This document shows positions 32,218 through 50,711 of a DNA stretch of 64,000 bases, piece after piece (the stretch's first letter is position 1; each line of letters starts with the position of its first letter). Under the pieces are notes generated by a model. It searched no databases. It was not told the origin of the DNA and saw only the letters and a program-made list of their open reading frames with translations. A program made the position numbers and the translations under genes. The stretch covers positions 1 to 64,000 of the forward strand of contig WIAL01000037.1 in assembly GCA_015519975.1 (NCBI GenBank), read 5' to 3'. Origin of the DNA: Hydrogenothermaceae bacterium (GTDB taxonomy: Bacteria > Aquificota > Aquificia > Aquificales > Hydrogenothermaceae).

Positions 32218-33213
32218 ATGAGAACATTTAAAAAAGTTTCTCTTGCAGCAGCAGGTCTTTTAGCACTTACTGGAGCAGCTTTAGCTAAAAATGCTCCGGC
32301 AAATCCAGATATGCTTATATGGGTAGATGATGCAAAAAAAGTTTTTGATGCAAAAGGTGCAATTTTCGTAAGCGGTGATTCTGATAAAAAATTTAAAGAA
32401 GGACATATTCCTGGATCTGCTCATGCATTTGGACACGACCTTCACCTTTTAAAAGATATTAAAGAATGTAAAGGTCTTCCTATGTGTATTCCAAGAGCTG
32501 AAAAGTTCATTGGAAGCTTAGGAATAGACAACAATACTAAAGTAATTGCTTATGATGATGGTAGAGGACCTAACGCATCAGCTGTTTGGTATTTCCTATG
32601 GCTTTATGGAATTGATGGTTTAAATGGTCAAAACAGAATGTTAGATGGTGGATTTGTAACTTGGCAGAAAAAAGGGTACCCAGTAGAAACAGGGGAAGGA
32701 AGCAAACCTGCACCAAAAACATTTAAAGCAAAAGTTAACTGGGATATCTTAGCTACAAAAGATGAAGTTTTAAAAGCTGTAGAAGATATCAAGAAAAATG
32801 GTAAAGATTCTAAATACTTTATTCTCGATGCAAGAAGATTCCAAGAGTATGTTGGAAAAACTTTACTTGAGGCTTTATATGAACCTGGAAAACACGAACA
32901 GGTTAAAAGAGGTGGTCACATACCAGGTGCGGTATTCTTCGAATGGAAAAAAGTAGCAGGAAACCCAAATGGAAAACCAGGAAAACACATATTCAAATCA
33001 GTTAAAAAGTTAAAGAAAGTGTTCTACAAAAAACTCAAGAAAAAAGGATTTAATCCAGATACAGATACACTTATCACATACTGTCACGTAGGTACAGGAA
33101 GAGGTTCATTTATTTTTGCTGCAGCTAAATACATAGGAATTCCTAAAGCAAAAGTTTATATTGGTTCTTGGGATGAATGGGGTAACGACCCATCTTTACC
33201 AGTTGCAAAATAA
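32218..33213 (+). CDS. Secreted tandem-rhodanese sulfurtransferase
   Basis: A 331-residue protein with a signal peptide (cleavage near ALA-K24) and two rhodanese domains. The C-terminal domain has the active-site loop TYCHVGTGRGSF with catalytic C289. The N-terminal domain has YDDGRGPNAS in the same position and no Cys, so it is structural, as in thiosulfate:cyanide sulfurtransferases. A second unusual feature is the paired C84/C90 region in the first domain. It acts in the periplasm, moving sulfane sulfur from thiosulfate or polysulfide. An AAGGAGG site and strong terminator frame it. Confidence 0.92.
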   Translation: MRTFKKVSLAAAGLLALTGAALAKNAPANPDMLIWVDDAKKVFDAKGAIFVSGDSDKKFKEGHIPGSAHAFGHDLHLLKDIKECKGLPMCIPRAEKFIGSLGIDNNTKVIAYDDGRGPNASAVWYFLWLYGIDGLNGQNRMLDGGFVTWQKKGYPVETGEGSKPAPKTFKAKVNWDILATKDEVLKAVEDIKKNGKDSKYFILDARRFQEYVGKTLLEALYEPGKHEQVKRGGHIPGAVFFEWKKVAGNPNGKPGKHIFKSVKKLKKVFYKKLKKKGFNPDTDTLITYCHVGTGRGSFIFAAAKYIGIPKAKVYIGSWDEWGNDPSLPVAK

Positions 33214-33220
33214 TTTAGCA

Positions 33221-33247
33221 AAGGGACTTTAAAAGTCCCTTTTTTAA
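33221..33247 (+). terminator. Terminator after the secreted rhodanese gene
   Basis: AAGGGACTTT (33221-33230) pairs with AAAGTCCCTT (33232-33241), followed by TTTTT. The YeeE gene starts 22 bp beyond, so this may be partial read-through attenuation. Confidence 0.75.
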
Positions 33248-33268
33248 TTTTATAGGAGGTTTATAGCT

Positions 33269-34387
33269 ATGGAAAATATGAGTCACCTTATTATGGGATT
33301 AATTACAGGTGCTCTTTTTGGTATAGTTCTTCATAAAGTTGGTGCTATCAGATACTCTAGAGTTGAAGGGATGCTTCTCCTCAGAGATTTAAAAATTATG
33401 AAGTTTGCATTTACTGGAATTGCTACAGCTTCTATTATTTACGGACTTGTGGATATTTTTGGGCTTCAAGAATCTACAAATATAATTCCTAGAATAATGC
33501 CATTTATGGGAATAGCCCACCTTGTTGGTGGATTTTTATTTGGTATTTCTATGGGCGCAGCTGGTTTTTGTCCTGGTACTTGTGTTGCAAGGGTTGGAGC
33601 TGGAAAATTTGTAGCTATTGGTGGAGTGATTGGTTTAATTTTAGGAATTCTTTTATACAGTGCAACTAAACCTGCACTTGTTGAAGCTGGCATTCTTGGA
33701 ATGAAAGAAAAGTTAACTTTATATGGAGTTTTAGGACTTCCTTACGGCGTGGTTGCTGTAGCTTGGGGAGTATTATTTATGATTTTTGCCTTGGTTGCTG
33801 ACTGGTTAGACCCTGCTAAAAAATACGAAGAAGGAAAACCTTTCTTATCAATAAAAGAAGAATGGCACTGGCTTCCTTCAGGAGTTGCTGCAGGACTTAT
33901 TATTACGTGGGCCACAGCTCAAGGAGAATACTTAGGATTTTCAGGGGCAACTTTAGCACTTGTAGGATGGATAGCAAATGCTTTAGGTCATCCTCTTGAT
34001 GTTGTTCCAAGAATTACAGAAGGAATCATATGGCATGCAGGTTTAATACTTGGTGTGCTTCCAGGTGCATTTTTAAGTGCTATTATTTCAAGAACATTTA
34101 AATTTGATGTTGTTCCACCACCATTTGCTGAAGTTGTTACTTCAGTTCCTTGGGTAAGAATTATACTTGTCTTCTTTGCTGGTATCGGGCTTGCATATGG
34201 AGCAATGGTTGGCGGAGGATGTACAACAGGTGCATTTATTTCTGCATATCCGACACTGTCTATAGGTTCTATGGCACAGTCAGGTACATATTTTATAGTT
34301 GGGGTACTTACTGCAAATCTTATTTACTTTGGTAGATGGAGTAGATTTATGGAAACTAAAGCTAAAGCTGATGAAGTTTATGACTAA
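33269..34387 (+). CDS. YeeE/YedE family thiosulfate/sulfur-compound transporter
   Basis: A 372-residue polytopic membrane protein with two homologous halves. Each half carries a family Cys motif: GFCPGTCVARVGAGK in the first and VGGGCTTGAFISA in the second. These Cys-Gly loops line the pathway in TsuA-type thiosulfate importers. Position between two rhodanese-type genes supports sulfane-sulfur transport. It may feed cytoplasmic sulfurtransferases; substrate not proven. Confidence 0.85.
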   Translation: MENMSHLIMGLITGALFGIVLHKVGAIRYSRVEGMLLLRDLKIMKFAFTGIATASIIYGLVDIFGLQESTNIIPRIMPFMGIAHLVGGFLFGISMGAAGFCPGTCVARVGAGKFVAIGGVIGLILGILLYSATKPALVEAGILGMKEKLTLYGVLGLPYGVVAVAWGVLFMIFALVADWLDPAKKYEEGKPFLSIKEEWHWLPSGVAAGLIITWATAQGEYLGFSGATLALVGWIANALGHPLDVVPRITEGIIWHAGLILGVLPGAFLSAIISRTFKFDVVPPPFAEVVTSVPWVRIILVFFAGIGLAYGAMVGGGCTTGAFISAYPTLSIGSMAQSGTYFIVGVLTANLIYFGRWSRFMETKAKADEVYD

Positions 34388-34400
34388 GGGGGTTAGATAA

Positions 34401-34532
34401 ATGAGTATGATTGAAAGATTTTTATACTGGACAGCAATTGTAGTTTTAATTATTGCTTTAGTAGGTATAAAAGGAAATATTTCAAAACTTGAACAGCAGG
34501 TATCACAAGCATCAGCACAGGTGGAGGAATAA
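34401..34532 (+). CDS. Small single-helix membrane protein (43 aa)
   Basis: Starts MSMIERFLYWTAIVVL, with one transmembrane helix and then a short coiled tail (GNISKLEQQVSQASAQVEE). A GGGGGTT ribosome site precedes the ATG, and the gene lies between the YeeE and rhodanese-like genes with 13 and 3 bp gaps, so it belongs to the operon. The size and shape suggest an accessory or anchoring peptide. No known family recognised. Confidence 0.6.
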   Translation: MSMIERFLYWTAIVVLIIALVGIKGNISKLEQQVSQASAQVEE

Positions 34533-34535
34533 ACA

Positions 34536-35036
34536 ATGAATCCAAAAATAGAAAGAGCTATTTATATTGGTATTATTTTAGTACTTGCAGTACTTGTTTT
34601 AAGTTTTGGTAAAAAACAAATAGAACTTCAAGAAAGTTTACCTCTAACAGTAGATCAGCTTTACAAAAAATTACAAAATCCTAAAATTAACTTACAAATA
34701 ATTGATGTACGACCTTATGAACCTACCGAAGAAGAAGAGGACGAAGCAGAAGATTACGACTTTTATACACTTGCTCATATTCCAGGTGCAATACCTATGC
34801 CTGATTGTGATGAGTCTAAAACACCTAAAGAAGCGCTGGATCATATTAACTACTATTTACCAACAGTGATAATCTCTAAACATGGTGATCCTAAGATTTT
34901 CCAAAAATGTGCTAAAAAATTTAAAATTGTTCAGAATGTAAAAGGTGGAATGGAAGCATGGCTTGATGCAGGCTATCCTACTGAAGAAGATGAGTATACT
35001 CCTCCAGCAGCTGGTGGAGGCGGCGGATGTCTATAA
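34536..35036 (+). CDS. Membrane-anchored rhodanese-like protein with a C-terminal Gly5-Cys-Leu tail
   Basis: A 166-residue protein: an N-terminal membrane anchor (residues ~8-24), then a rhodanese fold (LQIIDVRPYEP; LAHIPGAIPMP; VKGGMEAWLDAGYP). The place of the catalytic Cys loop reads VIISKHGDP, with no Cys, so it should not be a normal sulfurtransferase. The protein ends TPPAAGGGGGCL with C165 second from last, recalling the Cys swinging arm (GGCGG) of the sulfur carrier SoxY. I infer it may carry a sulfur atom. The acidic insert EEEEDEAEDYD is also unusual. Confidence 0.8.
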   Translation: MNPKIERAIYIGIILVLAVLVLSFGKKQIELQESLPLTVDQLYKKLQNPKINLQIIDVRPYEPTEEEEDEAEDYDFYTLAHIPGAIPMPDCDESKTPKEALDHINYYLPTVIISKHGDPKIFQKCAKKFKIVQNVKGGMEAWLDAGYPTEEDEYTPPAAGGGGGCL

Positions 35037-35044
35037 TAAAAAAT

Positions 35045-35062
35045 GGGGCTCTATGCCCCTTG
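35045..35062 (+). terminator. Hairpin between the rhodanese-like and molybdoenzyme genes
   Basis: GGGGC (35045-35049) and GCCCC (35055-35059) around TCTAT, followed by a weak TTGCTTT tract. It probably gives partial termination. Confidence 0.55.
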
Positions 35063-35124
35063 CTTTCATGCTTATTGTATGATAAGAATATCTTAATAAA
35101 TGCAATTTATAAGGAGGTAAAATA

Positions 35125-38064
35125 ATGGCCTTATCAAGAAGGAATTTCTTAAAAGCTCTAAGTGTTACAGGAGCAGGCCTTACTGTTGGTGGGAATGCTG
35201 CTTTTGCAAAGGATAAAGCCCTTATAGTAGAAGATCCAAGGGCATCATATCCAAACAGCTCTTATACAGAAAATATGTATAGAAAAGAATTTGCTTATAC
35301 GTACGGTCCAAGAAAGGATGATCACGGTACTGCATATCACTGTGTAAACTGTCAGGGTAACTGTGCGTGGGATGTATGGGTAGATAACGGAATTGTTACG
35401 AGGGAAAATCAGGTTGCAAACTATCCGCAAATTAATGCAAAAATACCTGACTTCAACCCAAGAGGATGTAATAAGGGTGTTCAACACTCTCAAGTAATGT
35501 ACGAAAAAGACAGAATACTTTATCCACTCAAAAGAGTTGGAAAAAGAGGGGAAGGAAAGTGGAAAAGAATTACATGGGATGAAGCTATTACTGAAATAGC
35601 TGAAAACATTTATAAAACAATGCTTGAAAAAGGGCCTGAAGGTCTTTACGTACACGTTGGTGCAGGTATGCTTACTGAAGCAAGAGCTGCATCAGGTAAA
35701 AGACTTGGTACTCAGCTTGGAGCACAAAGACCATACATAGCATCTTATGTTGGTGATATGTTCGCAGGTGTTACTGCAGTTTATGGTGAAGGTAACGTAG
35801 GATGTACATGGGATTATTACTATACTGTTAACACACAGGTTTGGTGGGGTATGAACCCTAATACATCAAGGATCCCAGATGCTCACTTTGTATGGGAAGG
35901 AAGATACAATGGTGCAAAGGTTATAGTTATAGCTCCAGAGTTTAACTCTACAGCTATACACGCAGATCTTTGGATACCTATAAAAGCTGGTTATGATGGT
36001 CATCTTGCTATGGCTGTTATTGATGAAATTATCCAGAAAAAAATGTACAAACCAGAATTTGTAAAACACTTTACTGACCTTCCATTCCTTGTAAGACTTG
36101 ACAACAAGAAACTTTTAAGACTTGAAGATATTGATGAAGAGAATCTTCCTGAAGAAATTGATGAAAAAGTTTTTGAGGCATTAAAAGCTAAAGCTGAAGA
36201 AGAAGGTGGTGAGTTTGAACCTGATGCATGTTTCTTTGCATTCAACACAAAATCTAATAAAATTGCTTTAATGCCTGGAACAGAAGGAAACCCTGTAAAA
36301 ACATTAAGACTTCACGATGTAACATGGGACATTGACCCAGCACTAGAGGGTACTTGGGAAGTAACTCTTAAAGATGGTTCAAAAGTTAAAGTTACTACTG
36401 TGTTTGAACTTTTAAAACAAGAAGCAAGAAAGTTCAGGAAGGAAAAAACATGGAAATTAACTGGCGTTCATCCTAAATTAGTTGAAGAACTTGCTAAAGA
36501 TATAGCCCTTCCAAAAGTTGTTCAGCTAACTGTTGGTTTCTCAATTGGTAAGTATTTCAATGGTGTGTTAAACCACAGAGCTATAGCATCAATTCCTGGT
36601 TTAACAGGTAGGCTTGGACCATTTGGTGGTCTTTCAACAGAAAACGAAATGGCTATTTCTGGAATGGGTAAACTTTCTGGATTTGCCGGAAAATACAAAC
36701 AAAGATTTGCATCAGGTTTTGTGAGTGAATTTGTTTACGGAAATCTTCTTGAAGATGCTGAAAAACTTTATGATGATGAAGATGTAAAAAGAGCAACAGG
36801 ACTTTCAAAAGAAGAGTACTTCAAAAGAGTTAAAGAAATACTTGCAAATTTTGGAAACGACGAAAAATGGAAAGAAAACTTACATAAAAAAGATGGTAAA
36901 CCTTATTGGGATACTTTTGAAACAGTACTACTTTTTGCTGACTCAAGATTTAGAAGAAACAAAGGTGCTACATATAAAAAGGCATTCCTCGAAAGAGCTA
37001 AGTTTTTTGCATATGTAGACTTTAGAATGAACTCAACTGCACAGTACGCAGATATAGTTTTACCAGCTAAATCTCACTACGAAGTTTGGGACTTAAGAAC
37101 AAACCCTGGATATCACAGATTTGCAAACCTTGCTCAGCCTCCAGCAAACTTAAAACCAGTTGGGGAATCCAAGTCTGAATGGGAAATCTGTACTTTGATT
37201 GCTGAAAAACTTCAAGAAATAGCACTTAAACATTTTGAAGAGGCTAAGAAAAAAGGTGATCCAAATCCAGAAAGATTTGTTAAAATACCTGATCCAACAC
37301 ACTCAAAAACTGGATACAGAGATCTTGCAAACTTTGTAAAAGAATTTACACAAGACGGAAAAGTGAGAACAGATAAAGATGCTGTTGAATTTGCTCTTGA
37401 ACATGTTGACCAGTTTAAACCAAATACTATTGAATCTATGAGAAAAAGAGGTGGATTCTTAGTACTTAATGAAAAAGCAGGAAAATCATCTCCACTTTAT
37501 CCAGATAAACCTTACAACTCATTTGAAAATAACCTTTACTTATTTGAAAGATTTGAAACCCTTTCAGGAAGACTCACATATTACATAGACCATCCGGTAT
37601 GGATAGAACTTGGGGCAGCAGTACCTACTGCTAAAGATGTAATTAGACCTAAGAGATTCCCATTTGTACTTATGACTCCTCACGCAAGATGGTCAATTCA
37701 CTCAACTTATAAAACTTCTACACTGCTCTTAAGACTTCAAAGAGGAAAACCATACGTAATGATTAATCCTGAAATTGCAGAGAAAAAGGGTATTAAAGAT
37801 GGTGATGAAGTAAGAGTATTTAATGACCTTGGCGACTTCTATGCAATGGCTAAAATCTATCCTTCTGCTCCAAAAGATGCTATTGTTATGGAACACGGAT
37901 GGGAACCTTTAATGTTTAAATTTAACAGAAACCACAACACAGTTGTAGGTGACCTTCTCAACCTCCTAGAGCTTTCAGATGGTTGGGGACATTTAAAATT
38001 CGGCGGTAACTGGGATGGTAACCAGCACGCTTATACAACATCAGTAGATATTGAAAAAGCTTAA
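35125..38064 (+). CDS. Molybdopterin oxidoreductase catalytic subunit, type II DMSO reductase family
   Basis: A 979-residue exported bis-MGD enzyme. The twin-arginine signal SRRNFLKAL is at the N-terminus. The proximal 4Fe-4S ligands follow the type II pattern HxxxCxxxC (H72, C76, C80) plus C115. A probable Mo ligand is D211 in YVGDMFAG; in type II enzymes (NarG, SerA, DdhA, EbdA) an Asp does this. The family motif SRIPDAHF is seen. It is followed by matching beta and gamma subunits. Periplasmic relatives act on nitrate, selenate, chlorate, dimethyl sulfide or ethylbenzene; the substrate is unknown here, and sulfur genes surround it. Confidence 0.9.
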   Translation: MALSRRNFLKALSVTGAGLTVGGNAAFAKDKALIVEDPRASYPNSSYTENMYRKEFAYTYGPRKDDHGTAYHCVNCQGNCAWDVWVDNGIVTRENQVANYPQINAKIPDFNPRGCNKGVQHSQVMYEKDRILYPLKRVGKRGEGKWKRITWDEAITEIAENIYKTMLEKGPEGLYVHVGAGMLTEARAASGKRLGTQLGAQRPYIASYVGDMFAGVTAVYGEGNVGCTWDYYYTVNTQVWWGMNPNTSRIPDAHFVWEGRYNGAKVIVIAPEFNSTAIHADLWIPIKAGYDGHLAMAVIDEIIQKKMYKPEFVKHFTDLPFLVRLDNKKLLRLEDIDEENLPEEIDEKVFEALKAKAEEEGGEFEPDACFFAFNTKSNKIALMPGTEGNPVKTLRLHDVTWDIDPALEGTWEVTLKDGSKVKVTTVFELLKQEARKFRKEKTWKLTGVHPKLVEELAKDIALPKVVQLTVGFSIGKYFNGVLNHRAIASIPGLTGRLGPFGGLSTENEMAISGMGKLSGFAGKYKQRFASGFVSEFVYGNLLEDAEKLYDDEDVKRATGLSKEEYFKRVKEILANFGNDEKWKENLHKKDGKPYWDTFETVLLFADSRFRRNKGATYKKAFLERAKFFAYVDFRMNSTAQYADIVLPAKSHYEVWDLRTNPGYHRFANLAQPPANLKPVGESKSEWEICTLIAEKLQEIALKHFEEAKKKGDPNPERFVKIPDPTHSKTGYRDLANFVKEFTQDGKVRTDKDAVEFALEHVDQFKPNTIESMRKRGGFLVLNEKAGKSSPLYPDKPYNSFENNLYLFERFETLSGRLTYYIDHPVWIELGAAVPTAKDVIRPKRFPFVLMTPHARWSIHSTYKTSTLLLRLQRGKPYVMINPEIAEKKGIKDGDEVRVFNDLGDFYAMAKIYPSAPKDAIVMEHGWEPLMFKFNRNHNTVVGDLLNLLELSDGWGHLKFGGNWDGNQHAYTTSVDIEKA

Positions 38065-38081: not shown

Positions 38082-39215
38082 ATGTCAAAAAGACAATTAG
38101 CAATGGTAATGGATTTAAATAAATGTATAGGTTGTCAGACATGTACAGTAGCATGTAAAACCCAATGGACAAACAGAAATGGAAGAGAATATATGTACTG
38201 GAATAACGTTGAGACACAGCCAGGAGCTGGATATCCAAGAAACTGGATGGAAGCTGGTGGTGGATTCGATGAAAATGGGAATCTCCAAGACGGTATTATT
38301 CCAGATATGGTTTTAGACTATGGAGTGCCATGGGATTACAATCATGATGAGCTTTTTGGAAATGCCGATACAAACATATTAAGCCCAGATTCAGACCCTG
38401 TTTGGGGTCCTAACTGGGATGAAGACGTTGGTGCTGGAGATTGGCCGAACTCTTACTACTTCTATCTTCCAAGAATTTGTAACCACTGTTCAAATCCAGG
38501 ATGTTTAGCTGCATGTCCAAGAGAAGCTATTTTCAAAAGAGAACAAGACGGTATAGTTCTCGTTGATCTTGATAGATGTCAAGGTTATAGATACTGTATA
38601 GCTGGCTGTCCTTATAAAAAGATATACTTTAACCCTAAACTTTCTAAATCAGAAAAATGTATTTTCTGTTTCCCAAGAATTGAAAGAGGACTTCCACCAG
38701 CATGTGCTCACCAGTGTGTAGGAAGAATTAGATTTGTTGGATTCTTAGACGATGAAGAAGGACAAGTTTATAAACTTGTTCATAAATATAAAGTTGCGTT
38801 ACCTTTAAGACCAGATATGGGAACTCAACCAAACGTTTACTATGTTCCTCCTGTATTATCTCCTCCAACATTTGATGAAAGCGGTGCCCCTGTTGAAGGT
38901 AGTGAAAGAATTCCTATGGAATTTTTAGAGAAGTTATTTGGACCAGAAGTTCACCAAGCTGCAAAAACACTTAAAGAAGAAATGGAAAAGAGAAAGAGAG
39001 GAGAAGAATCGGAATTAATGGATATTCTTATTGCTTACAGCCATAAAGATATGTTCAGACTTGATGAGAACTACTATCAGCAAATAGCAGAGCAGCAAGG
39101 ACTTAAAGGTTCTGAATTCTTTAAAATCGTTGATTACAGATATGTTCAAGGTCCTAATACTGAGAAAGTTAAAGTTGAATCTTATTTTGATGTTAAAGAA
39201 AGCAAAGAGGGGTAA
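38082..39215 (+). CDS. Molybdoenzyme beta subunit, four-cluster ferredoxin (type II family)
   Basis: A 377-residue electron-transfer subunit. Cluster motifs are CIGCQTCTVAC (C15 on), CNHCSNPGCLAAC, CQGYRYCIAGCPYKK and CIFCFPRIERGLPPACAHQC. In the third set the middle Cys is replaced by Tyr, as Trp replaces it in NarH, pointing to one 3Fe-4S and three 4Fe-4S clusters. The VETQPGAGYPRNW stretch matches DdhB, SerB and EbdB. No signal peptide, so it should be co-exported with the alpha subunit. Confidence 0.93.
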   Translation: MSKRQLAMVMDLNKCIGCQTCTVACKTQWTNRNGREYMYWNNVETQPGAGYPRNWMEAGGGFDENGNLQDGIIPDMVLDYGVPWDYNHDELFGNADTNILSPDSDPVWGPNWDEDVGAGDWPNSYYFYLPRICNHCSNPGCLAACPREAIFKREQDGIVLVDLDRCQGYRYCIAGCPYKKIYFNPKLSKSEKCIFCFPRIERGLPPACAHQCVGRIRFVGFLDDEEGQVYKLVHKYKVALPLRPDMGTQPNVYYVPPVLSPPTFDESGAPVEGSERIPMEFLEKLFGPEVHQAAKTLKEEMEKRKRGEESELMDILIAYSHKDMFRLDENYYQQIAEQQGLKGSEFFKIVDYRYVQGPNTEKVKVESYFDVKESKEG

Positions 39216-40927: not shown

Positions 40928-40982
40928 TATACAGCATATAATAATTAACGAAATCGGTTGTTAATTAGGTAGGTTTTTATGG

Positions 40983-41017
40983 GGGAATACTTGACAGAGT
41001 ATTCCCTTATTTTTATT
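40983..41017 (+). terminator. Terminator after the first molybdoenzyme operon
   Basis: GGGAATAC (40983-40990) and GTATTCCC (40999-41006) form an 8-bp stem with an 8-base loop, followed by TTATTTTTATT. Confidence 0.85.
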
Positions 41018-42612: not shown

Positions 42613-45600
42613 ATGAGAACAACAAGAAGAAACTTTTTAAAAACAGTTGCTGCTGCAGTTGGTGGTGCTGCTCTTGTTAAAGGAGCAGTTGAAAAAACTA
42701 CAAATCAAGCAGTAGCCGAAGAAGCAAATTTAACATTTACACCTCAACATTTAGATTATTATCCACCATTTGATAAATGGAATGACTGGAAAGAACCTTC
42801 TGGAGATTACTGGAAAAAACACGGAGGAGCTTTAAGAAACGGAGTAAAGCTCATTAATTATATGATCGTTCCAACAGTATGTAGTAACTGTGAAGCTGCA
42901 TGCGGTCTTACTGCATGGGTAGATAAAGATGAAATGGTAGTTAGAAAATTCATGGGTAACCCTTTCCACACAGGTTCAAGAGGTAGAAACTGTGCTAAAG
43001 GTTATGCTGCTTTATCTCAAATGTACGATCCAGATAGAATTCCTTTCCCATTAAAAAGAGCACCAGGTTCAAAAAGAGGAGAAGGAAAATGGGTTAGAAC
43101 TACCTGGGATGAAGCGCTAAAGACCATTGGCGAAAGAATGAGAGAAGTCATTAAAAAAGCTAAAAATGGTGATGAATACGCTAAAAAAATGATAATGTAC
43201 CACGTTGGAAGACCAAACTATAATGGTTTCCAGCCAAGAGTAGTATGGACCTGGGGTGGTGATTATCACAACTCACATACAAACTTCTGTTCATCTGGTG
43301 GTAGACTTGGTTCTATCACATGGTCTGGTGATGACAGAACTTCTCCAGACTTTGCAAACTCAAGATTAATATTCTTATCTTCTTCTCACGCAGCAGATGC
43401 AGGTCACTACTTCCAGCAGCACGCAGGATACATTGCAGATGCAAGAGCTAAAGGTGCAAAACTTGTAGTAATGGATCCAAGACTTTCAAACTCTGCAGGT
43501 ATGGCTGATTTATGGCTTCCTACATGGCCTGGAACTGAGGCTGCTATATTCTTAGCAATGGCAAGTAGATTACTTCAGGAAGATAAATACAACAGAAAGT
43601 TTGTAGAAAGATGGTTCAACTGGAAAACTTTAATGAAAGATAAGGATTATCTAAATTATCTTAAAAAAGAAGGAATTATTTCTAAAGTCCCTGAAGGTGA
43701 AACTTTTGATGACTTTATTTCTGTTTTAAAAGAAATTTATGCTCCATATACTTTTGAGTGGGCAGCAGAAGAAACAAAAGTTCCTATAGACAGACTTGAA
43801 AAGCTTTATGAAATGATACTCTGGGCTGGAGATAGAATTACTTCTTACTTCTGGAGAGCTCAGGCTGCAGGAAACCGTGGTGGTTGGATGTCTGCAGGTA
43901 GAACAGGAAACTTCTTACTTGCCTTAACAGGTTCTATTGGTGGAGTTGGTGGAACAGGATGGCATCACTGGCATGCACTTGGAGTTGGAAATAATGGTGG
44001 TGCATCTACATTAAAAGATAAACCTAAACCAGTAGATGCCTGGAGTGAATTACTCTGGCCTCCAGAATGGCCAATTGCAGCTTATGAGCTAAGTATAATC
44101 CTACCACACCTACTTTCTGATGATGAATGGAGAAAGAAATGGGAGAAAAGAGGTCTTAAAATCCCTGATAAAGTAGAAGTATGGTTTGGTAGAATGTATA
44201 ACCCTGTATGGACTAACCCAGATGGGTTCAGATGGATAGAAACTTTGACAGATGAAAATAAATTTGGGTTAACTATACATATGTCTCCAACTTGGTCAGA
44301 AACAAGCTGGTATGTTGATTACATACTTCCTGTTGGTCTGGCAGGTGAAAGACACGACAACCAGACTGCTGAAACAAAACCCGAAAGATGGACTGCATTT
44401 AGACAACCTGTATTAAGAGTAGCTCTCAAAAAAATGGGATGGAAACCTGAAAATCCTGCAAGGGCTACACTTGAGGCTCACAAAAAGGTTGGACTTGGTG
44501 AAGTTTGGGAAGATGATGAATTCTGGATTAACCTTGCATGGGCTATAGATCCAGACGGCTCTCTTGGTATAAGACAGTACTGGGAATCTAAGAAAAATCC
44601 AGGACAACCTGTTACAGTTGAGGAATGGTACAATGCATGTTTCTCTACAATACCAGGACTTAAGAAAATATGTGAAAAGATGGGAATTACCCCTTATGAA
44701 TACATGAGAGATAGGGGAGCATGGACAGAGGAAACTAACGTTTACAATGTGATGGAAAGGGAAGTTCCTTATGACCCTGTTAAAAAGGCAATAAAAGTAA
44801 AAGGAAAATGGATACCTCTTTCTGAATGTGATATAGATGAAAATGGAGCAGTATTCTTAAAGCATCACAATGCAAAAAAATACCACTCAGAAAGACATAT
44901 ACTTGCAGTTAAGAAAGACGGTAAATTCTTAAAAGGATTCCATACGCCTACAGGGCACCTTGAATACTACTCAAAAACTCTTGTAGAATTTGGCTGGCCT
45001 GAATATGCTATTCCAATTTATCCAAGAACTGATGATCAAAGAAAGAAATGGATACACATCTTATCTCACGTTCACCACTCTTACATGAATGAAGAAAACG
45101 CATTTGTGTTAAACCCAATATTCAGACTTGTTTACAACATTCACACACGTTCTGTAAACGCTAAATGGCTTATGGAAATTTCTCAAAACCACAACCCTGT
45201 ATGGATACATGAAAGTGATGCTAAGAGACTGGGAATTAAGAGAGGAGAACCTGTTAAATTAAGAGTTATTGATACACTAACAGGTATAGAAACAGGATAT
45301 TTTGTTGGTATGGCAATGCCAACACAGGCTATAAGACCAGGTGTTGTTGCATGTTCTCACCATCAAGGTAGATGGAGAGTTAGAGATTTTGTTAAAGTAG
45401 AGGGATTTGATCAAGGACTTGGAGTAATGACATTTGGATCAACAAGAGTCAATATTGAAAGAGATGGTAATACATGGAAAATGAGAACTGTTGAAGGAAC
45501 TATTCCAAGAGAAGTAAAAGCTAAGCATCATGAAAAATGGTTAAAATGGCCGTATCCTGAATTTAATGAAGATATTAAAGAAGTATGGTGGAAAGCAACT

Positions 45601-45900
45601 ACAGGAGTATGGCAAAACGCTGTATTCCCACCAAACCCTGATCCACTTTCCGGTATGCAGTGCTGGCATAAGAAAGTATTAATAGAAAAAGGCGGTCCAG
45701 ATGATAAAATTGGTGATGTTGTTGTAAATACTGATGCAACATTTAAAGTATATCAGGCATGGAGAGACAAGCTTACTAGACCAGCTCCAGGACCTAACGG
45801 CTTAAGAAGACCAAAATGGATGCCAAGACCATGGTATCCACATACAGACAGTGCATACAGAATGCCAGGGACAGCTGGACATTCTTCACACGAAGAATAA
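42613..45900 (+). CDS. Molybdopterin oxidoreductase catalytic subunit (polysulfide/tetrathionate/sulfur reductase-like)
   Basis: A large, 1095-residue exported bis-MGD enzyme. The twin-arginine signal TTRRNFLKTV leads. The 4Fe-4S ligands are C90, C93, C97 (CSNCEAAC) and C127, with Cys rather than His first, unlike the other molybdoenzyme here. The likely Mo ligand is C226 in SHTNFCSSGG. The operon order FeS-NrfD-catalytic is the same as ttrBCA for tetrathionate reductase; PsrA, SreA and SoeA types are alternatives. The size suits tetrathionate or sulfur reductases. A GC-rich hairpin follows. Confidence 0.88.
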   Translation: MRTTRRNFLKTVAAAVGGAALVKGAVEKTTNQAVAEEANLTFTPQHLDYYPPFDKWNDWKEPSGDYWKKHGGALRNGVKLINYMIVPTVCSNCEAACGLTAWVDKDEMVVRKFMGNPFHTGSRGRNCAKGYAALSQMYDPDRIPFPLKRAPGSKRGEGKWVRTTWDEALKTIGERMREVIKKAKNGDEYAKKMIMYHVGRPNYNGFQPRVVWTWGGDYHNSHTNFCSSGGRLGSITWSGDDRTSPDFANSRLIFLSSSHAADAGHYFQQHAGYIADARAKGAKLVVMDPRLSNSAGMADLWLPTWPGTEAAIFLAMASRLLQEDKYNRKFVERWFNWKTLMKDKDYLNYLKKEGIISKVPEGETFDDFISVLKEIYAPYTFEWAAEETKVPIDRLEKLYEMILWAGDRITSYFWRAQAAGNRGGWMSAGRTGNFLLALTGSIGGVGGTGWHHWHALGVGNNGGASTLKDKPKPVDAWSELLWPPEWPIAAYELSIILPHLLSDDEWRKKWEKRGLKIPDKVEVWFGRMYNPVWTNPDGFRWIETLTDENKFGLTIHMSPTWSETSWYVDYILPVGLAGERHDNQTAETKPERWTAFRQPVLRVALKKMGWKPENPARATLEAHKKVGLGEVWEDDEFWINLAWAIDPDGSLGIRQYWESKKNPGQPVTVEEWYNACFSTIPGLKKICEKMGITPYEYMRDRGAWTEETNVYNVMEREVPYDPVKKAIKVKGKWIPLSECDIDENGAVFLKHHNAKKYHSERHILAVKKDGKFLKGFHTPTGHLEYYSKTLVEFGWPEYAIPIYPRTDDQRKKWIHILSHVHHSYMNEENAFVLNPIFRLVYNIHTRSVNAKWLMEISQNHNPVWIHESDAKRLGIKRGEPVKLRVIDTLTGIETGYFVGMAMPTQAIRPGVVACSHHQGRWRVRDFVKVEGFDQGLGVMTFGSTRVNIERDGNTWKMRTVEGTIPREVKAKHHEKWLKWPYPEFNEDIKEVWWKATTGVWQNAVFPPNPDPLSGMQCWHKKVLIEKGGPDDKIGDVVVNTDATFKVYQAWRDKLTRPAPGPNGLRRPKWMPRPWYPHTDSAYRMPGTAGHSSHEE

Positions 45901-45909
45901 TTTATAAAT

Positions 45910-45930
45910 GGGGGCTTTGCCCCCTATTTG
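45910..45930 (+). terminator. Hairpin after the second molybdoenzyme catalytic gene
   Basis: GGGGGC (45910-45915) and GCCCCC (45919-45924) around TTT, followed by TATTTG. The TorD gene starts 56 bp beyond, so it may reduce expression of the chaperone. Confidence 0.65.
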
Positions 45931-45979: not shown

Positions 45980-46615
45980 ATGGAAAATATTATTGAAATG
46001 ACACAGGCCAGAATAAACATGTATGGTTTTTTATCAAGACTTTTAATTGAAGAAGTTGATCCATTTACTTTAAATAAAATCAAAGAAAATGAAGATCTTC
46101 TTGAATTATTTCCAAATACAAAAGAATGGGAAGATTTTTGGGAAAAGGACACTATGAAACTTGTTGAAGAAGATTTAAATGTAGACTTTACCACTATTTT
46201 TATTTTAAATGTTTACCCTTATGAGTCTGTATTTGTTAATGATGAAGGGCATATAAATCCAACAATTACCAATCCAACCCTTATCTTTTATAGAGAACAT
46301 GGATACTCAATTGATTTAAATAAGACAAGGGCTTTATCTCCAGATCATATAGGAGTAGAACTTGAATTTATGATGAATTTAGTTCAAGAAGAGTTAAATG
46401 CTTTAGCTAGAGAAGATGAAAATGAAGTAAAAAGATTAAGGGAAATACAGAAAAAGTTTCTTGAAGAACATATAGGAAATTGGACTGTTCCATATTTACT
46501 TGCTGTTAAAGATATAGCAGAAACACCGTTTTACTATGATGTTGCAGATGCAACGCTGGAATTTTTAATGTCAGACCTTGAATATCTTTACAATTTAGAA
46601 GAACAACCTGCTTAA
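45980..46615 (+). CDS. TorD/NarJ-type molybdoenzyme chaperone
   Basis: A 211-residue all-helical protein. It has MTQARINMYGFLSRLL near the N-terminus, a central YPYESVFVN stretch and SPDHIGVELEFMMNLV, which are typical of TorD/DmsD-family redox enzyme maturation proteins. It would bind the Tat signal of one or both exported molybdoenzymes until cofactor insertion. It is the only chaperone seen in the island, so it may serve both. Confidence 0.88.
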   Translation: MENIIEMTQARINMYGFLSRLLIEEVDPFTLNKIKENEDLLELFPNTKEWEDFWEKDTMKLVEEDLNVDFTTIFILNVYPYESVFVNDEGHINPTITNPTLIFYREHGYSIDLNKTRALSPDHIGVELEFMMNLVQEELNALAREDENEVKRLREIQKKFLEEHIGNWTVPYLLAVKDIAETPFYYDVADATLEFLMSDLEYLYNLEEQPA

Positions 46616-46629: not shown

Positions 46630-47712
46630 TTGAGTAAATTAAATTTTGACATATATGCGTGTGTTCGTACATATTATAGATACTCATCTTGTCAAAAGTG
46701 TATAGATGTCTGTCCTATTGAGGATACCCTTTACATAGAAAATGACAAGATTCAAATAAATGAGAATAAATGTATTTCCTGTGGAGCCTGCGTAGGAGTT
46801 TGTCCAACAGAAGCTTTTTCTTTAAATGGTTTTAATCCGCCAGATTTATATCAAAAAATGGTTGAAGAAAATCAAAACCTTATAAGCTGTAAATTAAATG
46901 TCCCATGTGCATCTTCTTTTGACAGCCAATATTTGGTAGCTTTGGCTTTAGACATTAAAAATGATGTTGTTGTTGATGTAGGGTACTGCCAGTCCTGTGA
47001 AATTGGAAGTTTAAAAGAAAGAATTGAGGATATAGCAAAAGAAGCAAATTATGTTCTCGAGCAGTTAGGTGTTAATTACAGAGTAAAACTTGAAGATATA
47101 AAATATGAAGTACCTAAAGAAACAGAAAAAAAACTACAAAGAAGAAATTTCTTGAAAAGATTCTCAAAACAAGCAGCAGGACTTGCATTTTGGGCTTTAA
47201 TGCCTGATATTCCTGTAGAAGAAAAAGAAACTCCTGAATATAAAAATTTAGTAGAAGAAAAGGTTATACCGGAAAAAAGAAAAGTTTTTGTAAAAGCTTT
47301 AAAAAATTCTGACATAGATTTGTCCGACAAATATTTAGAAGTAGATAAAATATCTTTCACGTCTGAGAAGTGGATCGATAATAAAAAATGTACAAACTGT
47401 TATGTTTGCTATCATATGTGTCCTACAGGTGCTTTAAAAGAGGGGAATCAAAAACTTTCAATTCTTTTTGAACCGTCTTTATGTGTAAAATGTAGAATTT
47501 GCCATGAAATGTGTCCAGAAGATTGTTTACATTTAGCAGATAAATTAAATTTAAATACCTTTGCAAATGAAATTGAAGTATTAGCAGAACATGTAATGAT
47601 ACCTTGTGAAGAATGTATGATACCTTTTTCATATAAAGGAGATTCAACTATTTGTCCAAGATGCCGAAAATTAGAAGATGAAATAAAAGATTTACTACGA
47701 ATAGGCGATTAA
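46630..47712 (+). CDS. Polyferredoxin with an internal twin-arginine-like motif
   Basis: A 360-residue protein with a TTG start preceded by GAGGTGATT. The N-terminal part holds 4Fe-4S motifs (CQKCIDVC; CISCGACVGVC, C48 on). Near the middle, residues 171-176 read RRNFLK followed by a hydrophobic stretch (AAGLAFWALMP), just like a Tat signal but internal. The C-terminal half has two more 4Fe-4S motifs (CTNCYVCYHMC; CVKCRICHEMC) and a zinc-ribbon-like CEEC...CPRC. The layout looks like two proteins joined. It is coupled to the TorD gene; likely an electron-transfer or maturation partner. Confidence 0.82.
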   Translation: MSKLNFDIYACVRTYYRYSSCQKCIDVCPIEDTLYIENDKIQINENKCISCGACVGVCPTEAFSLNGFNPPDLYQKMVEENQNLISCKLNVPCASSFDSQYLVALALDIKNDVVVDVGYCQSCEIGSLKERIEDIAKEANYVLEQLGVNYRVKLEDIKYEVPKETEKKLQRRNFLKRFSKQAAGLAFWALMPDIPVEEKETPEYKNLVEEKVIPEKRKVFVKALKNSDIDLSDKYLEVDKISFTSEKWIDNKKCTNCYVCYHMCPTGALKEGNQKLSILFEPSLCVKCRICHEMCPEDCLHLADKLNLNTFANEIEVLAEHVMIPCEECMIPFSYKGDSTICPRCRKLEDEIKDLLRIGD

Positions 47713-47752: not shown

Positions 47753-47781
47753 TTGACAAAAAATAAAAATATATTTAACAT
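47753..47781 (+). promoter_or_regulatory. Promoter of the FadL-type porin gene
   Basis: TTGACA (47753-47758) and TAACAT (47776-47781) with a 17-bp spacer. The porin ATG with GGAGG lies 44 bp downstream at 47825. Confidence 0.55.
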
Positions 47782-47824
47782 AAAAAGTTATAAAAATATT
47801 TTAATAACTTTAGGAGGTAGAAAC

Positions 47825-49012
47825 ATGCGTAAATTGGTAGGTTCGGCAGTACTTGCATCGGCTGTATTATCTACGGCTGCTTTTGCAACAAATGGGGTTA
47901 ATTTAATAGGAGTATCCCAGTCTTCAAGGGCTATGGGAGGTATTGGTGTTGGGACTCAAGTTGGTGCTACCGATGCATTGTTTAGAAACCCTGCTTGGAT
48001 GAATTCTGAAAAAGGTTTCAATGTAAGTTTCGGCGGGATTCTTTTTATGCCAAATGTTAAAGCAAAAGGTAAAGTAGCTACACCAGCTGGACTTGTAAAT
48101 GTAGATGAGAAATCTGATGCAGATACTTTTACTATTCCAGAAGTTGCCATAGTTAATCAGATAAACGATCAGCTGACATTTGGAATTGGTGCTTTTGGTG
48201 TGTCTGGAATGGGAGTAGATTACAGAGGAAAAAATCCTGTACTTCAAAATCTATATACTAATTTTCAATTTATGAGAATAATTCCTGCTCTATCTTATGA
48301 AATTATGCCAGGTTTCTCTATAGGTGGAGCATTACATATTGCATGGGGTTCTTTAGATTTAAGAGGAGGTGCATCTCAAGATTATGGCTTAGGAGCTCAA
48401 GTTGGGGTTGCTTATGATCTTGGAATGATAAGTGTAGGAGCTGAATATACGTCTGAAATTTCAATGACATATAAAAATGTTTCAGATTTAGATGGTGATG
48501 GAAATTTAGATGATTTTGATTTAACACAACCTCAAGAGTTTGCATTTGGGCTCGGTGTTAAACCTTTAGATAATTTAAAACTTGGTCTTGATATAAGATG
48601 GATAAACTGGTCAGATGCCAAAGGATATAAAGATTTTGGTTGGGACGACCAATGGGTATTTGCCATAGGTGGAGAATATAAAATAGATAAACTTGCTTTG
48701 AGAGCAGGATATAATTACGGAAAAAATCCTTTGAGTGATATAACTGTTAATTTTGGAAATCCAGCAGCACCAACTGCTGCAGAACAAATGTATTTTAGAA
48801 GTGCATTTTTTAATGTTATCGGTTTCCCAGCAGTGGCAGAACAACATATTTCGTTAGGGGCAGGATATCAGTTTACTAAAAACTTTACTTTAAATGTATC
48901 TTATGTTTATTCTCCAAAATCAGATGTTAAATTAACTTCAAATAATGGAACAGACATAAAATCAGAAATGACTCAGCAATCTATTGGTATAGGTTTAGAT
49001 TGGAACTTTTAA
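47825..49012 (+). CDS. FadL/OmpP1/TodX-family outer membrane transport protein
   Basis: A 395-residue outer-membrane beta-barrel of the family that imports hydrophobic molecules. I start at ATG 47825, where TAGGAGG precedes it; an in-frame TTG at 47753 is the promoter -35 box. Signal peptide cleavage is near AFA-T22. The NGVNLIGVSQSSRAMGGIGVG plug sequence and C-terminal Phe (GLDWNF) are classic. It follows two sulfur-linked molybdoenzymes; import of elemental sulfur or another apolar substrate is inference. Confidence 0.9.
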   Translation: MRKLVGSAVLASAVLSTAAFATNGVNLIGVSQSSRAMGGIGVGTQVGATDALFRNPAWMNSEKGFNVSFGGILFMPNVKAKGKVATPAGLVNVDEKSDADTFTIPEVAIVNQINDQLTFGIGAFGVSGMGVDYRGKNPVLQNLYTNFQFMRIIPALSYEIMPGFSIGGALHIAWGSLDLRGGASQDYGLGAQVGVAYDLGMISVGAEYTSEISMTYKNVSDLDGDGNLDDFDLTQPQEFAFGLGVKPLDNLKLGLDIRWINWSDAKGYKDFGWDDQWVFAIGGEYKIDKLALRAGYNYGKNPLSDITVNFGNPAAPTAAEQMYFRSAFFNVIGFPAVAEQHISLGAGYQFTKNFTLNVSYVYSPKSDVKLTSNNGTDIKSEMTQQSIGIGLDWNF

Positions 49013-49025
49013 TTTCTCATGATGG

Positions 49026-49043
49026 GGGGCTTATGCCCCTTCT
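49026..49043 (+). terminator. Terminator after the porin gene
   Basis: GGGGC (49026-49030) and GCCCC (49035-49039) around TTAT, followed by TTCTATAATTC. Confidence 0.65.
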
Positions 49044-49065
49044 ATAATTCTAACGGAGGGATGAA

Positions 49066-49560
49066 ATGAAAAAAATACAGGCTTTAATACTTTCTTTAAT
49101 TGGGTTTTTTGCCGTATCTTATGCACAACCACCTTTTATGTCTCCTGAATATGCTAAAGAATTTTGTGATCTTTGGAATAAAACAGAAGATTTAACAGAA
49201 GGCCTTGCAGACTGGGCTAAAAATATAAAACAAGGAAAAGAGTATAGAAGCATAGCTTTTTATAGAAGTGACTGTGGTGGACCAGAAAAGGCTGTGGAGG
49301 TTCATATAGTAAATAAAGACGGAAAAGCTATATGTATTTACGGCGGAAAGGCTGTTGATCCAAACCCTGACTTTTTAATGTACACAACTACAGAAAAATG
49401 GAAAGAACTTGCAAATGGTGAGTTTGGATTTATGGGAATGGGAATTATGACAAAAATGACATTTAAAGGCTCAAAAATGGAAGCAATGAGAAATATGGGG
49501 CCTTTTAAAGCATTTTTATTAAATCTTGGAAAAGTTCCTCACACAGATCAGTGTCCGTAA
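49066..49560 (+). CDS. Secreted hypothetical protein, 164 aa
   Basis: A signal peptide ends near SYA-Q21. The mature part is about 144 residues with three Cys (C34 in KEFCDLW, one in SDCGGPEK, one near the end in HTDQCP) and one in AICIYGG. The CIYGGKAVDPNPDFLMYTT segment suggests a sterol-carrier (SCP2)-like lipid-binding fold, but I am not confident. It is placed between the porin and YeiH genes and has its own ribosome site and terminator. Confidence 0.55.
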   Translation: MKKIQALILSLIGFFAVSYAQPPFMSPEYAKEFCDLWNKTEDLTEGLADWAKNIKQGKEYRSIAFYRSDCGGPEKAVEVHIVNKDGKAICIYGGKAVDPNPDFLMYTTTEKWKELANGEFGFMGMGIMTKMTFKGSKMEAMRNMGPFKAFLLNLGKVPHTDQCP

Positions 49561-49573
49561 TAATTAATAACAT

Positions 49574-49594
49574 GGGGCTTTACGCCCCTTATTC
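49574..49594 (+). terminator. Terminator after the secreted protein gene
   Basis: GGGGC (49574-49578) and GCCCC (49584-49588) around TTTAC, followed by TTATTC. Confidence 0.65.
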
Positions 49595-49688
49595 AAACTA
49601 TCAATACATCTATTAAAATTTTTCAAAAAATAAATTTTCAAATATAGTTATAATATTTTTTTAATTATTTTATAATGGAGGCTTTTTT

Positions 49689-50711
49689 ATGCTTAAATAT
49701 CTTCCTGGTATAGCTGTTTCTGTATCTGTTGCTTTACTTGCAATGTTTTTAGCAAGTTTAGATTTTGTAAAGAATACACTTCATTTTAGTTCCTTAATTT
49801 TAGCTATTTTAATCGGTGTAGTAGTTGGAAATACAATAAAATTTTCAGATACATTTAAACCAGGTATAACTTTTTCTTTGAAGAAAATACTTAGAATTGC
49901 TATTGTATTTTTAGGTTTTAGACTTACGTTTCAAAACGTAATGGAAGTAGGTCTTATTGGATTAATAGTAGACACTATAATGCTGAGTTCTACTTTTATA
50001 ATAGGAGTATGGGTTTCGCGAAAATGGTTTGGCCTTGAAGATAAAATGGCTTATTTAGTTTCTTCTGGAAGTTCTATTTGCGGGGCATCGGCTGTTCTTG
50101 CTACTGCACCAGTTGTAAAAGCTGAGATGCACCATGCTGCTATGGCTGTAGCGACAGTAACCATTTTCGGTACTACTGCAATGTTTGTTTATCCTGTAGT
50201 TTATAAAATGTTTGGAGTTACACTTGGATTTGATGACATTTTATACGGAATATGGACTGGAGCTACAGTTCACGAAGTTGCCCAGGTTGTTGCTGCTGGA
50301 TTTGCTATCTCAGAACCTGCAGGAAATACAGCAACGATAGCAAAACTAACCAGGGTTATGATGCTTGCTCCTCTTCTTATAATTTTAAGTATTTATCTCG
50401 CTAAAAAGCACAAAACACACGGTGCAGGAACTACGTTAAGAGACATTCCTATTCCTTATTTTGTCTTTGGTTTTATAGCAATGGTTGGAGTAAACTCTAC
50501 ACATATAGTCCCTCAAAATATAGTATCTGCCATAAATTATGTAGATGGATTTTTGCTTACTATAGCAATGGCAGCTATGGGAATAGAAACAAATGTTAAT
50601 AAGATAAAAGGTGTAGGAATGAAACCTATATATGCTGCTGCTGTTATATTTTTGTTCTTATTCTTTGGCGGTATTATTGCTGTAAAATTTATACATTCGA
50701 TACTTGCATAA
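49689..50711 (+). CDS. YeiH/UPF0324-family putative sulfur-oxyanion exporter
   Basis: A 340-residue membrane protein with about ten helices, including the family signature SSGSSICGASAVLATAPVVKA and a WTGATVHEVAQVVAAGF repeat half. Members (PSE family) are proposed sulfate/sulfite exporters, chiefly on context. Here it closes a run of sulfur genes and may remove oxidation products. A TATAAT box lies at 49649-49654, without a clear -35. Confidence 0.87.
   Translation: MLKYLPGIAVSVSVALLAMFLASLDFVKNTLHFSSLILAILIGVVVGNTIKFSDTFKPGITFSLKKILRIAIVFLGFRLTFQNVMEVGLIGLIVDTIMLSSTFIIGVWVSRKWFGLEDKMAYLVSSGSSICGASAVLATAPVVKAEMHHAAMAVATVTIFGTTAMFVYPVVYKMFGVTLGFDDILYGIWTGATVHEVAQVVAAGFAISEPAGNTATIAKLTRVMMLAPLLIILSIYLAKKHKTHGAGTTLRDIPIPYFVFGFIAMVGVNSTHIVPQNIVSAINYVDGFLLTIAMAAMGIETNVNKIKGVGMKPIYAAAVIFLFLFFGGIIAVKFIHSILA

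What the first reader, a model, noticed from the sequence alone, without database searches (positions are those of the whole stretch)
32218..50711. An 18-kb island pairing two exported molybdoenzymes with rhodaneses, sulfur transporters and a FadL porin
All genes point one way: secreted rhodanese, YeeE-type importer, one-TM peptide, rhodanese-like protein, type II molybdoenzyme (alpha, beta, gamma), GCL-tailed protein, FeS-NrfD-molybdoenzyme with TorD, polyferredoxin, FadL porin, secreted protein and YeiH exporter. Each family alone is known, but I know of no described system with this combination. It looks like import of an apolar or sulfane-sulfur substrate, periplasmic oxidation or reduction, and export of product.
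Basis: partly seen in the sequence, partly recalled or inferred. Interest (0 to 1): 0.75.

Follow-up and report, generated by a model that had tools for sequence, protein, structure and literature searches.

The report
A second molybdenum route for sulfur oxidation
The island carries a conserved set of molybdenum-enzyme genes with its own small cysteine-tailed sulfur-carrier protein, and in vent bacteria of another phylum the same set sits exactly where close relatives keep the known SoxCD sulfur-oxidation genes, so it probably does the same job with unrelated parts.

Summary
An 18-kb, one-direction block is conserved in gene order across the family Hydrogenothermaceae (14 of 14 loci). It is composite. 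Module 1 (rhdA, alpha1-beta1-gamma1 type II molybdoenzyme, an exported protein ending FFKGCL) also occurs in Campylobacterota as rhdA-alpha1-beta1-gamma1-FFKGCL-TorD-polyferredoxin. Module 2 (FeS-NrfD-alpha2) is a Psr/Ttr-like, quinone-linked enzyme that stands alone there. YeeE, the 1-TM peptide and a rhodanese-like protein ending GGGGGCL are additions seen only in this family; FadL-SCP2-YeiH are variable.

New functional evidence: of 249 Campylobacterota genomes, the 37 with module 2 all have exactly one of module 1 (18) or true SoxC (19), switching about 8 times on the alpha2 tree. In near relatives the module-1 operon and soxCDYZ occupy the same chromosomal slot, with shared flanking genes on both sides in the best pair. 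A SoxXYZAB operon without SoxCD lies near module 1 in both phyla, and Hydrogenothermaceae lack true SoxC.

Best reading: module 1 is a SoxCD-replacing sulfane dehydrogenase. RhdA loads sulfur on a flexible penultimate-cysteine arm, and alpha1-beta1-gamma1 oxidises it with electrons passing to cytochrome c. Replacement is strongly supported; the chemistry is inferred and untested.

The parts
32218..33213 (+). rhdA: exported tandem rhodanese; C-terminal loop YC[HQM]VGxGR (CX5R) invariant in two phyla; N-terminal domain without catalytic Cys
   Evidence: first gene of module 1 in both phyla
33220..33242 (+). terminator-like hairpin after rhdA
33269..34387 (+). YeeE/TsuA-like sulfur-compound transporter (PF04143), addition seen in the Hydrogenothermaceae loci only
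34401..34535 (+). 43-aa one-TM peptide
34536..35036 (+). rhdB: membrane-anchored rhodanese-like domain lacking the catalytic Cys, with disordered invariant tail EYxPPxxGGGGGCL
   Evidence: tail 153-166 pLDDT < 50
35045..35059 (+). terminator-like hairpin after rhdB
35125..38064 (+). alpha1: Tat-exported type II DMSO-reductase-family catalytic subunit; Asp211 aligns with the Mo ligand of PcrA/EbdA/NarG; H-x3-C-x3-C cluster motif
38082..39215 (+). beta1: four-cluster FeS subunit (TIGR03478, above cut-off)
39262..40446 (+). gamma1: EB_dh heme-b domain fused to a c-type cytochrome (CxxCH)
40472..40927 (+). GCLp: exported small protein with compact core and proline-rich disordered arm ending FFKGCL (penultimate Cys); proposed sulfur carrier
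40979..41010 (+). terminator-like hairpin (14 pairs) closing module 1 after GCLp
41073..41708 (+). FeS2: ferredoxin-like subunit of module 2 (93-96% identical across the family)
41711..42595 (+). NrfD2: quinone-interacting membrane subunit (PF03916)
42613..45900 (+). alpha2: 1095-aa Tat-exported molybdoenzyme, Cys226 aligns with the PsrA/ArrA Mo-ligand Cys; own clade with Campylobacterota sequences
45910..45924 (+). terminator-like hairpin after alpha2
45980..46615 (+). TorD-family molybdoenzyme chaperone
   Evidence: member of both modules in Campylobacterota
46630..47712 (+). polyferredoxin, partner of TorD in both modules
47753..49012 (+). FadL/OmpP1-family outer-membrane protein (true start probably an internal ATG; optional)
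49066..49560 (+). secreted SCP2-like protein (weak match), ends ..QCP; optional
49689..50711 (+). YeiH-family putative anion exporter (TIGR00698); optional

Best explanation
The core of the island (rhdA, alpha1-beta1-gamma1, GCLp, with TorD/polyferredoxin for maturation) is a periplasmic sulfane dehydrogenase that does the job of SoxCD(YZ) with unrelated parts. Proposed steps: (1) secreted RhdA takes sulfane sulfur from thiosulfate, polysulfide or Sox intermediates; (2) it passes it as a persulfide to the penultimate cysteine of the flexible, proline-hinged FFKGCL arm of GCLp; (3) the arm enters the active site of alpha1 (Mo, Asp-ligated), where the outer sulfur is oxidised with oxygen from water; (4) electrons leave through beta1 FeS clusters, heme b and heme c of gamma1 to soluble cytochrome c and a terminal reductase; (5) the oxidised sulfur leaves as sulfite or sulfate. 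Module 2 (FeS2-NrfD2-alpha2) is a separate periplasmic, quinone-linked enzyme of the Psr/Ttr kind acting on the same pool (polysulfide or carrier-bound sulfur). In this family YeeE plus the membrane-anchored GGGGGCL arm protein would divert sulfane sulfur into the cytoplasm. Shown: gene content, conservation, exclusivity and same-slot replacement with soxCDYZ. Inferred: steps 1-5, direction and product.
For: Same operon in two phyla: alpha1 at about 60% identity in 29/249 Campylobacterota genomes, with rhdA upstream and a 128-199 aa ORF ending FFKGCL straight after gamma1 in all 20 loci read. The Hydrogenothermaceae and Campylobacterota carriers match over their length (hhalign E 9.5e-17). The GCLp core is predicted at pLDDT > 90 with a low-confidence tail. 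Phyletic exclusion: of 249 genomes, SoxC 38, alpha1 29, both 2; all 37 alpha2+ genomes have exactly one (18 vs 19), and none of the 184 genomes with neither has alpha2. The partner changes 8 times on the alpha2 tree, at least 6 forced. Same slot: G269 (module 1) and G312 (soxCDYZ), sisters on the alpha2 tree, share one flanking gene on the left and five on the right with nothing homologous between; G375 vs G265 share seven flanking genes on one side. The layout is parallel: Mo enzyme, cytochrome, C-terminal-Cys carrier (SoxY ends GGCEG there). soxXYZAB without soxCD lies near module 1 in G165 and G149 (roughly 6-15 kb) and about 7 kb from the island in G002. No true SoxC in any of 22 Hydrogenothermaceae genomes searched although SoxB is common; literature states Aquificae appear to lack soxCD (PMC3367023) and that SoxCD oxidises SoxYZ-bound sulfane (PMC4584964).
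Against: No biochemistry or expression data. The nearest characterised relatives of alpha1 (ClrA, and the SerA/DdhA group from my own knowledge) include reductases, so direction cannot be read from sequence. Two genomes (G245, G384) carry both alpha1 and SoxC. Most module-1 Campylobacterota lack SoxB, so the sulfate-releasing step is unknown there. The shared slot lies next to MoaC and MobA, so both operons could be drawn to a molybdenum locus. Genome samples are unnamed, so lifestyle could not be checked, and the gene tree of alpha2 stands in for a species tree.
Confidence: 0.62

Rival explanations
1. Module 1 is a terminal reductase: electrons come from cytochrome c through gamma1 to alpha1, which reduces selenate, chlorate, tetrathionate or polysulfide, as in SerABC/ClrABC.
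For: ClrA is the nearest reference in the tree (39%, 99/98 support). rhdA and rhdB have weak hits to selenium-linked rhodanese models. Some Sulfurihydrogenibium species reduce selenate (own knowledge).
Against: Replacement slot for slot by soxCDYZ and nearness to soxXYZAB; a dedicated Cys-arm protein and rhodanese are not parts of the chlorate reductase operon (ClrABDC neighbourhood in L096).
Confidence: 0.18
2. The exclusivity and shared slot reflect a molybdenum-cofactor neighbourhood and lineage history, not shared function; module 1 and SoxCD are unrelated in role.
For: The flanks include MoaC and MobA (assigned from sequence by eye). Labels are clustered on the tree more than shuffled.
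Against: About eight switches, each time one system in and the other out; all 37 alpha2+ genomes have exactly one. SoxB, tested the same way, is not exclusive with module 1 (7 of 18 alpha2+ module-1 genomes have it).
Confidence: 0.12
3. The whole island is a sulfur-disproportionation or sulfur-cycling unit: module 1 oxidises and module 2 reduces the same zero-valent sulfur. (Compatible with the best explanation for module 1.)
For: Both modules are joined in one block in Hydrogenothermaceae and co-occur in Campylobacterota (18 of 249, 4.3 expected, p 2e-10); alpha2 resembles Psr.
Against: Many module-1 genomes lack module 2 (11 of 29), and module 2 goes equally with SoxCD. A 2026 survey of disproportionation genes (PMC12998232) describes no such cluster in the passages read. 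Members of this family are not known as disproportionators (own knowledge).
Confidence: 0.2
4. One reading: one integrated system importing an apolar sulfur substrate (FadL), converting it and exporting product (YeiH).
For: FadL and the SCP2-like gene follow the core in six relatives, with YeiH seen in five of them.
Against: The trio is absent after the core in several relatives (L032, L033, L034, L036 and also L023, L024) and from the Campylobacterota operons.
Confidence: 0.1

Closest known systems
SoxCD-SoxYZ sulfane dehydrogenase of the Sox pathway
   Same: Periplasmic Mo enzyme + c-type cytochrome + small exported carrier with a cysteine near its C-terminus; same chromosomal slot and mutually exclusive occurrence in Campylobacterota
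   Different: SoxC is a sulfite-oxidase-fold enzyme (PF00174); alpha1 is a DMSO-reductase-family enzyme with FeS clusters and a heme-b partner; GCLp gives no SoxY match
Type II DMSO-reductase enzymes ClrABC, PcrAB, EbdABC, NarGHI (SerABC, DdhABC by own knowledge)
   Same: Asp Mo ligand, His/Cys cluster motif, four-cluster beta, heme-b gamma
   Different: Own clade with 37-39% identity to ClrA; gamma carries a fused cytochrome c; constant rhodanese and FFKGCL neighbours; alpha and gamma below the curated subfamily cut-offs
Polysulfide/thiosulfate/tetrathionate/arsenate reductases (Psr, Phs, Ttr, Arr)
   Same: alpha2 with Cys ligand, ferredoxin-like FeS and NrfD subunits
   Different: 1095 aa, about 25-34% to PsrA/ArrA over the matched N-terminal part, far below all equivalog cut-offs; forms its own clade with Campylobacterota, then Thermomicrobium, Rhodococcus and haloarchaeal enzymes
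DsrC / SoxY / TusA sulfur carriers
   Same: Flexible C-terminal arm with a conserved cysteine
   Different: No sequence match in Pfam or NCBIfam and no significant fold match

Membership tests
Type II DMSO-reductase family (alpha1) | Asp ligand of Mo and H-x3-C-x3-C cluster motif | tested here: met
   D211 in column with PcrA, EbdA, NarG, ClrA; HCVNCQGNC
Type II DMSO-reductase family (alpha1) | curated NCBIfam subfamily score | tested here: inconclusive
   TIGR03479 is by far the best model (827 bits) but below its cut-off of 984.75; beta above (541 vs 480.7); gamma below (111.8 vs 169.85)
EbdA, NarG, YnfE equivalogs | curated cut-off | tested here: not met
   all far below; own clade, sister to ClrA
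SoxCD | SoxC homology (sulfite-oxidase fold, TIGR04555) | tested here: not met
   searches show a different superfamily; hence functional analogue at most
SoxCD | oxidises carrier-bound sulfane with cytochrome c as acceptor | not testable with these tools
   inferred from displacement and exclusivity
SoxY / DsrC carriers | sequence family membership | tested here: not met
   no match for GCLp
SoxY / DsrC carriers | flexible C-terminal arm with conserved cysteine | tested here: met
   FFKGCL invariant in all copies read, tail predicted disordered
Psr/Phs/Ttr/Arr (alpha2) | Cys Mo ligand with FeS + NrfD partners | tested here: met
Psr/Phs/Ttr/Arr (alpha2) | equivalog cut-offs | tested here: not met
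   PhsA 150 vs 694, TtrA 63 vs 1750, ArrA 76 vs 1600 bits
Rhodanese sulfurtransferase (rhdA) | catalytic Cys loop | tested here: met
   YCxVGxGR in all 33 sequences
Rhodanese sulfurtransferase (rhdB) | catalytic Cys loop | tested here: not met
   loop Cys absent in all 15 sequences; arm Cys invariant

The most novel reading that the evidence does not exclude
A second, evolutionarily independent sulfane dehydrogenase exists: a type II DMSO-reductase-family complex with its own FFKGCL-armed carrier, which has repeatedly replaced, or been replaced by, SoxCD-YZ at the same locus in Campylobacterota and completes sulfur oxidation in Hydrogenothermaceae that lack SoxCD.
Probability: 0.55. Interest if true: 0.87.

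Novelty: new variant of a known kind. Interest (0 to 1): 0.78.

Why it matters
Aquificota, and many vent Campylobacterota, carry Sox genes without SoxCD, or no Sox at all, so how they oxidise the sulfane sulfur atom (6 of the 8 electrons of thiosulfate) has been open. A non-homologous replacement with a defined carrier would explain it for Hydrogenothermaceae and these Campylobacterota, give a marker for sulfur oxidation that current gene lists miss, and add oxidation of protein-bound sulfur to the chemistry of the type II molybdoenzymes. It is directly testable by complementing a soxCD deletion.

Tried and rejected
Idea that the block is confined to one genus: rejected, it spans the family. 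Idea that module 2 is the sulfur-linked core and module 1 an accessory: module 1 turned out to be the part with its own rhodanese and carrier in both phyla. Module 2 homologues on plasmids (Thermomicrobium, Rhodococcus, Natrinema) looked like a route to function (DsrE, TusA, rhodanese and TauE neighbours), but they lack Tat signals and are only 43-49% identical. GCLp fold search in the PDB: nothing significant, weak OB-fold-type hits only. Desulfobacterota: only remote type II relatives (2 of 345, 34-38%). Upstream 430-aa gene of module 2 in Campylobacterota suspected to be a porin: it is histidinol dehydrogenase in one locus and a sensor kinase in another. First alpha2 tree had one row in a wrong frame; rebuilt without that error, with G275 left out because no frame passed the motif filter. 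Dependence of module 1 on Sox: rejected, most module-1 Campylobacterota genomes have no SoxB. A selenium role was considered from weak model hits and kept only as a rival. Counts in phyla beyond the three searched could not be made.
Full report
WHAT IS THERE. Family searches give: tandem rhodanese (rhdA); a Sulf_transp/YeeE protein; a 43-aa one-TM peptide; a rhodanese-like protein (rhdB); type II molybdoenzyme alpha1/beta1/gamma1; an unassigned secreted protein (here GCLp); FeS2, NrfD2 and alpha2; a TorD-like chaperone; a polyferredoxin; FadL; a weak SCP2 match; and YeiH. Terminator-like hairpins after rhdA, rhdB, GCLp and alpha2 divide it into units (22 such sites found against 11.2 in shuffles).

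CONSERVATION. alpha1 and alpha2 are present across Hydrogenothermaceae and absent from the other Aquificota families searched. In 14 of 14 loci the order rhdA-yeeE-1TM-rhdB-alpha1-beta1-gamma1-GCLp-FeS2-NrfD2-alpha2-TorD-polyferredoxin is kept, apart from contig or stretch ends and single undetected genes; one genome has three yeeE copies upstream of the 1-TM gene in the stretch read. FadL-SCP2-YeiH follows in some only. The titles of the matching records name Hydrogenothermus, Persephonella and Sulfurihydrogenibium.

TWO CYSTEINE ARMS. rhdB ends GGGGGCL and GCLp ends FFKGCL in every copy read to its end. rhdB lacks the rhodanese catalytic cysteine, so its most obvious reactive group is on the arm. 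AlphaFold models give well-ordered domains with low-confidence tails (GCLp: core above 90, last 11 residues about 48-62; rhdB: residues 153-166 below 50). Both resemble the swinging arms of SoxY (GGCGG-type end) and DsrC (penultimate Cys; own knowledge), without sequence relation. GCLp has no significant PDB fold match.

THE SAME CORE IN ANOTHER PHYLUM. GCLp's profile found a hit in a Campylobacteraceae genome that proved to lie directly downstream of a gamma1 homologue. In Campylobacterota, alpha1 (about 60% identity, full length) occurs in 29 of 249 sampled genomes. The operon there is rhdA-alpha1-beta1-gamma1-GCLp-TorD-polyferredoxin, with the tail (A)PPPPKKSFFKGCL. Carriers of the two phyla match over their length. 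Divergent genes upstream of rhdA encode an Mrp/NBP35 ATPase, an unknown small protein and an LRV-repeat protein. I call this core module 1. Module 2 (FeS2-NrfD2-alpha2-TorD-polyferredoxin) stands elsewhere on those chromosomes. In Hydrogenothermaceae FeS2-NrfD2-alpha2 sits between GCLp and TorD.

CATALYTIC SUBUNITS. alpha1 has the Asp Mo ligand and the His/Cys cluster motif of type II enzymes and forms one clade (100/100) with the Campylobacterota sequences, nearest to ClrA (39%) among the references used. alpha2 has the Cys ligand of the Psr/Arr group (Cys226). Its clade joins Campylobacterota sequences (54-59%) and, further off, Thermomicrobium, Rhodococcus and Natrinema enzymes (43-49%), some of which lie beside DsrE, TusA or rhodanese genes. 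Reference sequences of PcrA, EbdA, PsrA, ArrA and acetylene hydratase were fragments taken from the printed alignments, and SerA, DdhA, TtrA, SoeA and SreA were not available, so the trees place these enzymes only coarsely.

THE KEY RESULT: MODULE 1 STANDS IN FOR SoxCD. Hydrogenothermaceae have SoxB in most genomes but none of 22 searched has a SoxC above the curated cut-off, in line with a published statement that Aquificae appear to lack soxCD (PMC3367023). In 249 Campylobacterota genomes SoxC occurs in 38, alpha1 in 29, both in two. alpha2 occurs in 37, of which 18 have alpha1, 19 have SoxC, none has both and none has neither (Fisher p 1e-26 for alpha2 against 'either', 6e-11 for the exclusion; these p values ignore kinship). 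On the alpha2 tree the partner changes 8 times, at least 6 forced by well-supported branches. SoxB, tested the same way, is not exclusive with module 1. In G269 (module 1) and its sister on that tree G312 (soxCDYZ), the two operons lie in the same slot: a shared lipoprotein-like gene on the left, then a DUF6781-like gene, MoaC, MobA and further shared genes on the right, and nothing homologous between. G375 and G265 share seven genes on one side of the slot. G265's contig length of 2,153,198 bp equals, from memory, that of Sulfurimonas autotrophica. The order inside is parallel: molybdoenzyme, cytochrome-bearing subunit, then a small exported carrier with a C-terminal cysteine (SoxY there ends GGCEG). 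In G165 and G149 a soxXYZAB operon without soxCD lies near module 1 (about 6 and 13 kb from rhdA), and in G002, of the window's genus, about 7 kb from the island. The window's own genome has the same soxXYZAB operon on another contig (L242).

MECHANISM. Best reading: RhdA loads sulfane sulfur on the GCLp arm, the arm delivers it to alpha1, and electrons go through beta1 and gamma1 to cytochrome c. This is what SoxCD does for SoxYZ-bound sulfane (PMC4584964). In Sulfurovum indicum the soxCDY2Z2 cluster is proposed to oxidise zero-valent sulfur alone (PMC10045233), which fits module-1 genomes without SoxB. Shown here: content, conservation, exclusion, same-slot replacement. Inferred: substrate, direction, product, the roles of module 2, YeeE and rhdB. 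FadL and the SCP2-like protein might handle apolar sulfur; this is speculation.

LIMITS. The paper library is open-access only, so an earlier description in a subscription journal cannot be excluded.

Noticed in passing
window 50773-51124 (+): tmRNA gene (RF00023, 179.9 bits) directly downstream of yeiH; ARAGORN reported no tmRNA in the window.
   Followed up: partly
L025 12168-15500 (G009): Three tandem yeeE copies upstream of the block in one relative.
   Followed up: no
G106 contig C31 19137-22382: alpha2 apparently broken by several in-frame stops, a decaying copy or poor assembly.
   Followed up: no
L122, L120, L130: alpha1 split into two reading frames in G167, G172 and G281; could be sequencing errors or real frameshifts.
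   Followed up: no
L092 7624-13980 (Rhodococcus jostii RHA1 pRHL3), L091, L093, L094: alpha2 relatives without Tat signal, with FeS-NrfD fusion-sized partners and often Mrp/NBP35, next to DsrE/TusA/rhodanese genes: a probably cytoplasmic branch of the family with no described function that I could find.
   Followed up: partly
Campylobacterota loci L120-L138, upstream of rhdA: Divergent trio Mrp/NBP35, unknown ~120 aa protein, LRV-repeat protein in most module-1 loci; probable FeS or molybdoenzyme maturation genes.
   Followed up: partly
window 49066-49560: The secreted SCP2-like protein also ends with a conserved penultimate cysteine (..CP).
   Followed up: no
L242 130-5119 (G000 contig C29): The window's genome carries soxX-like, a thioredoxin, soxY (GGCG end), soxZ, soxA and soxB as one operon, without soxCD.
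   Followed up: yes
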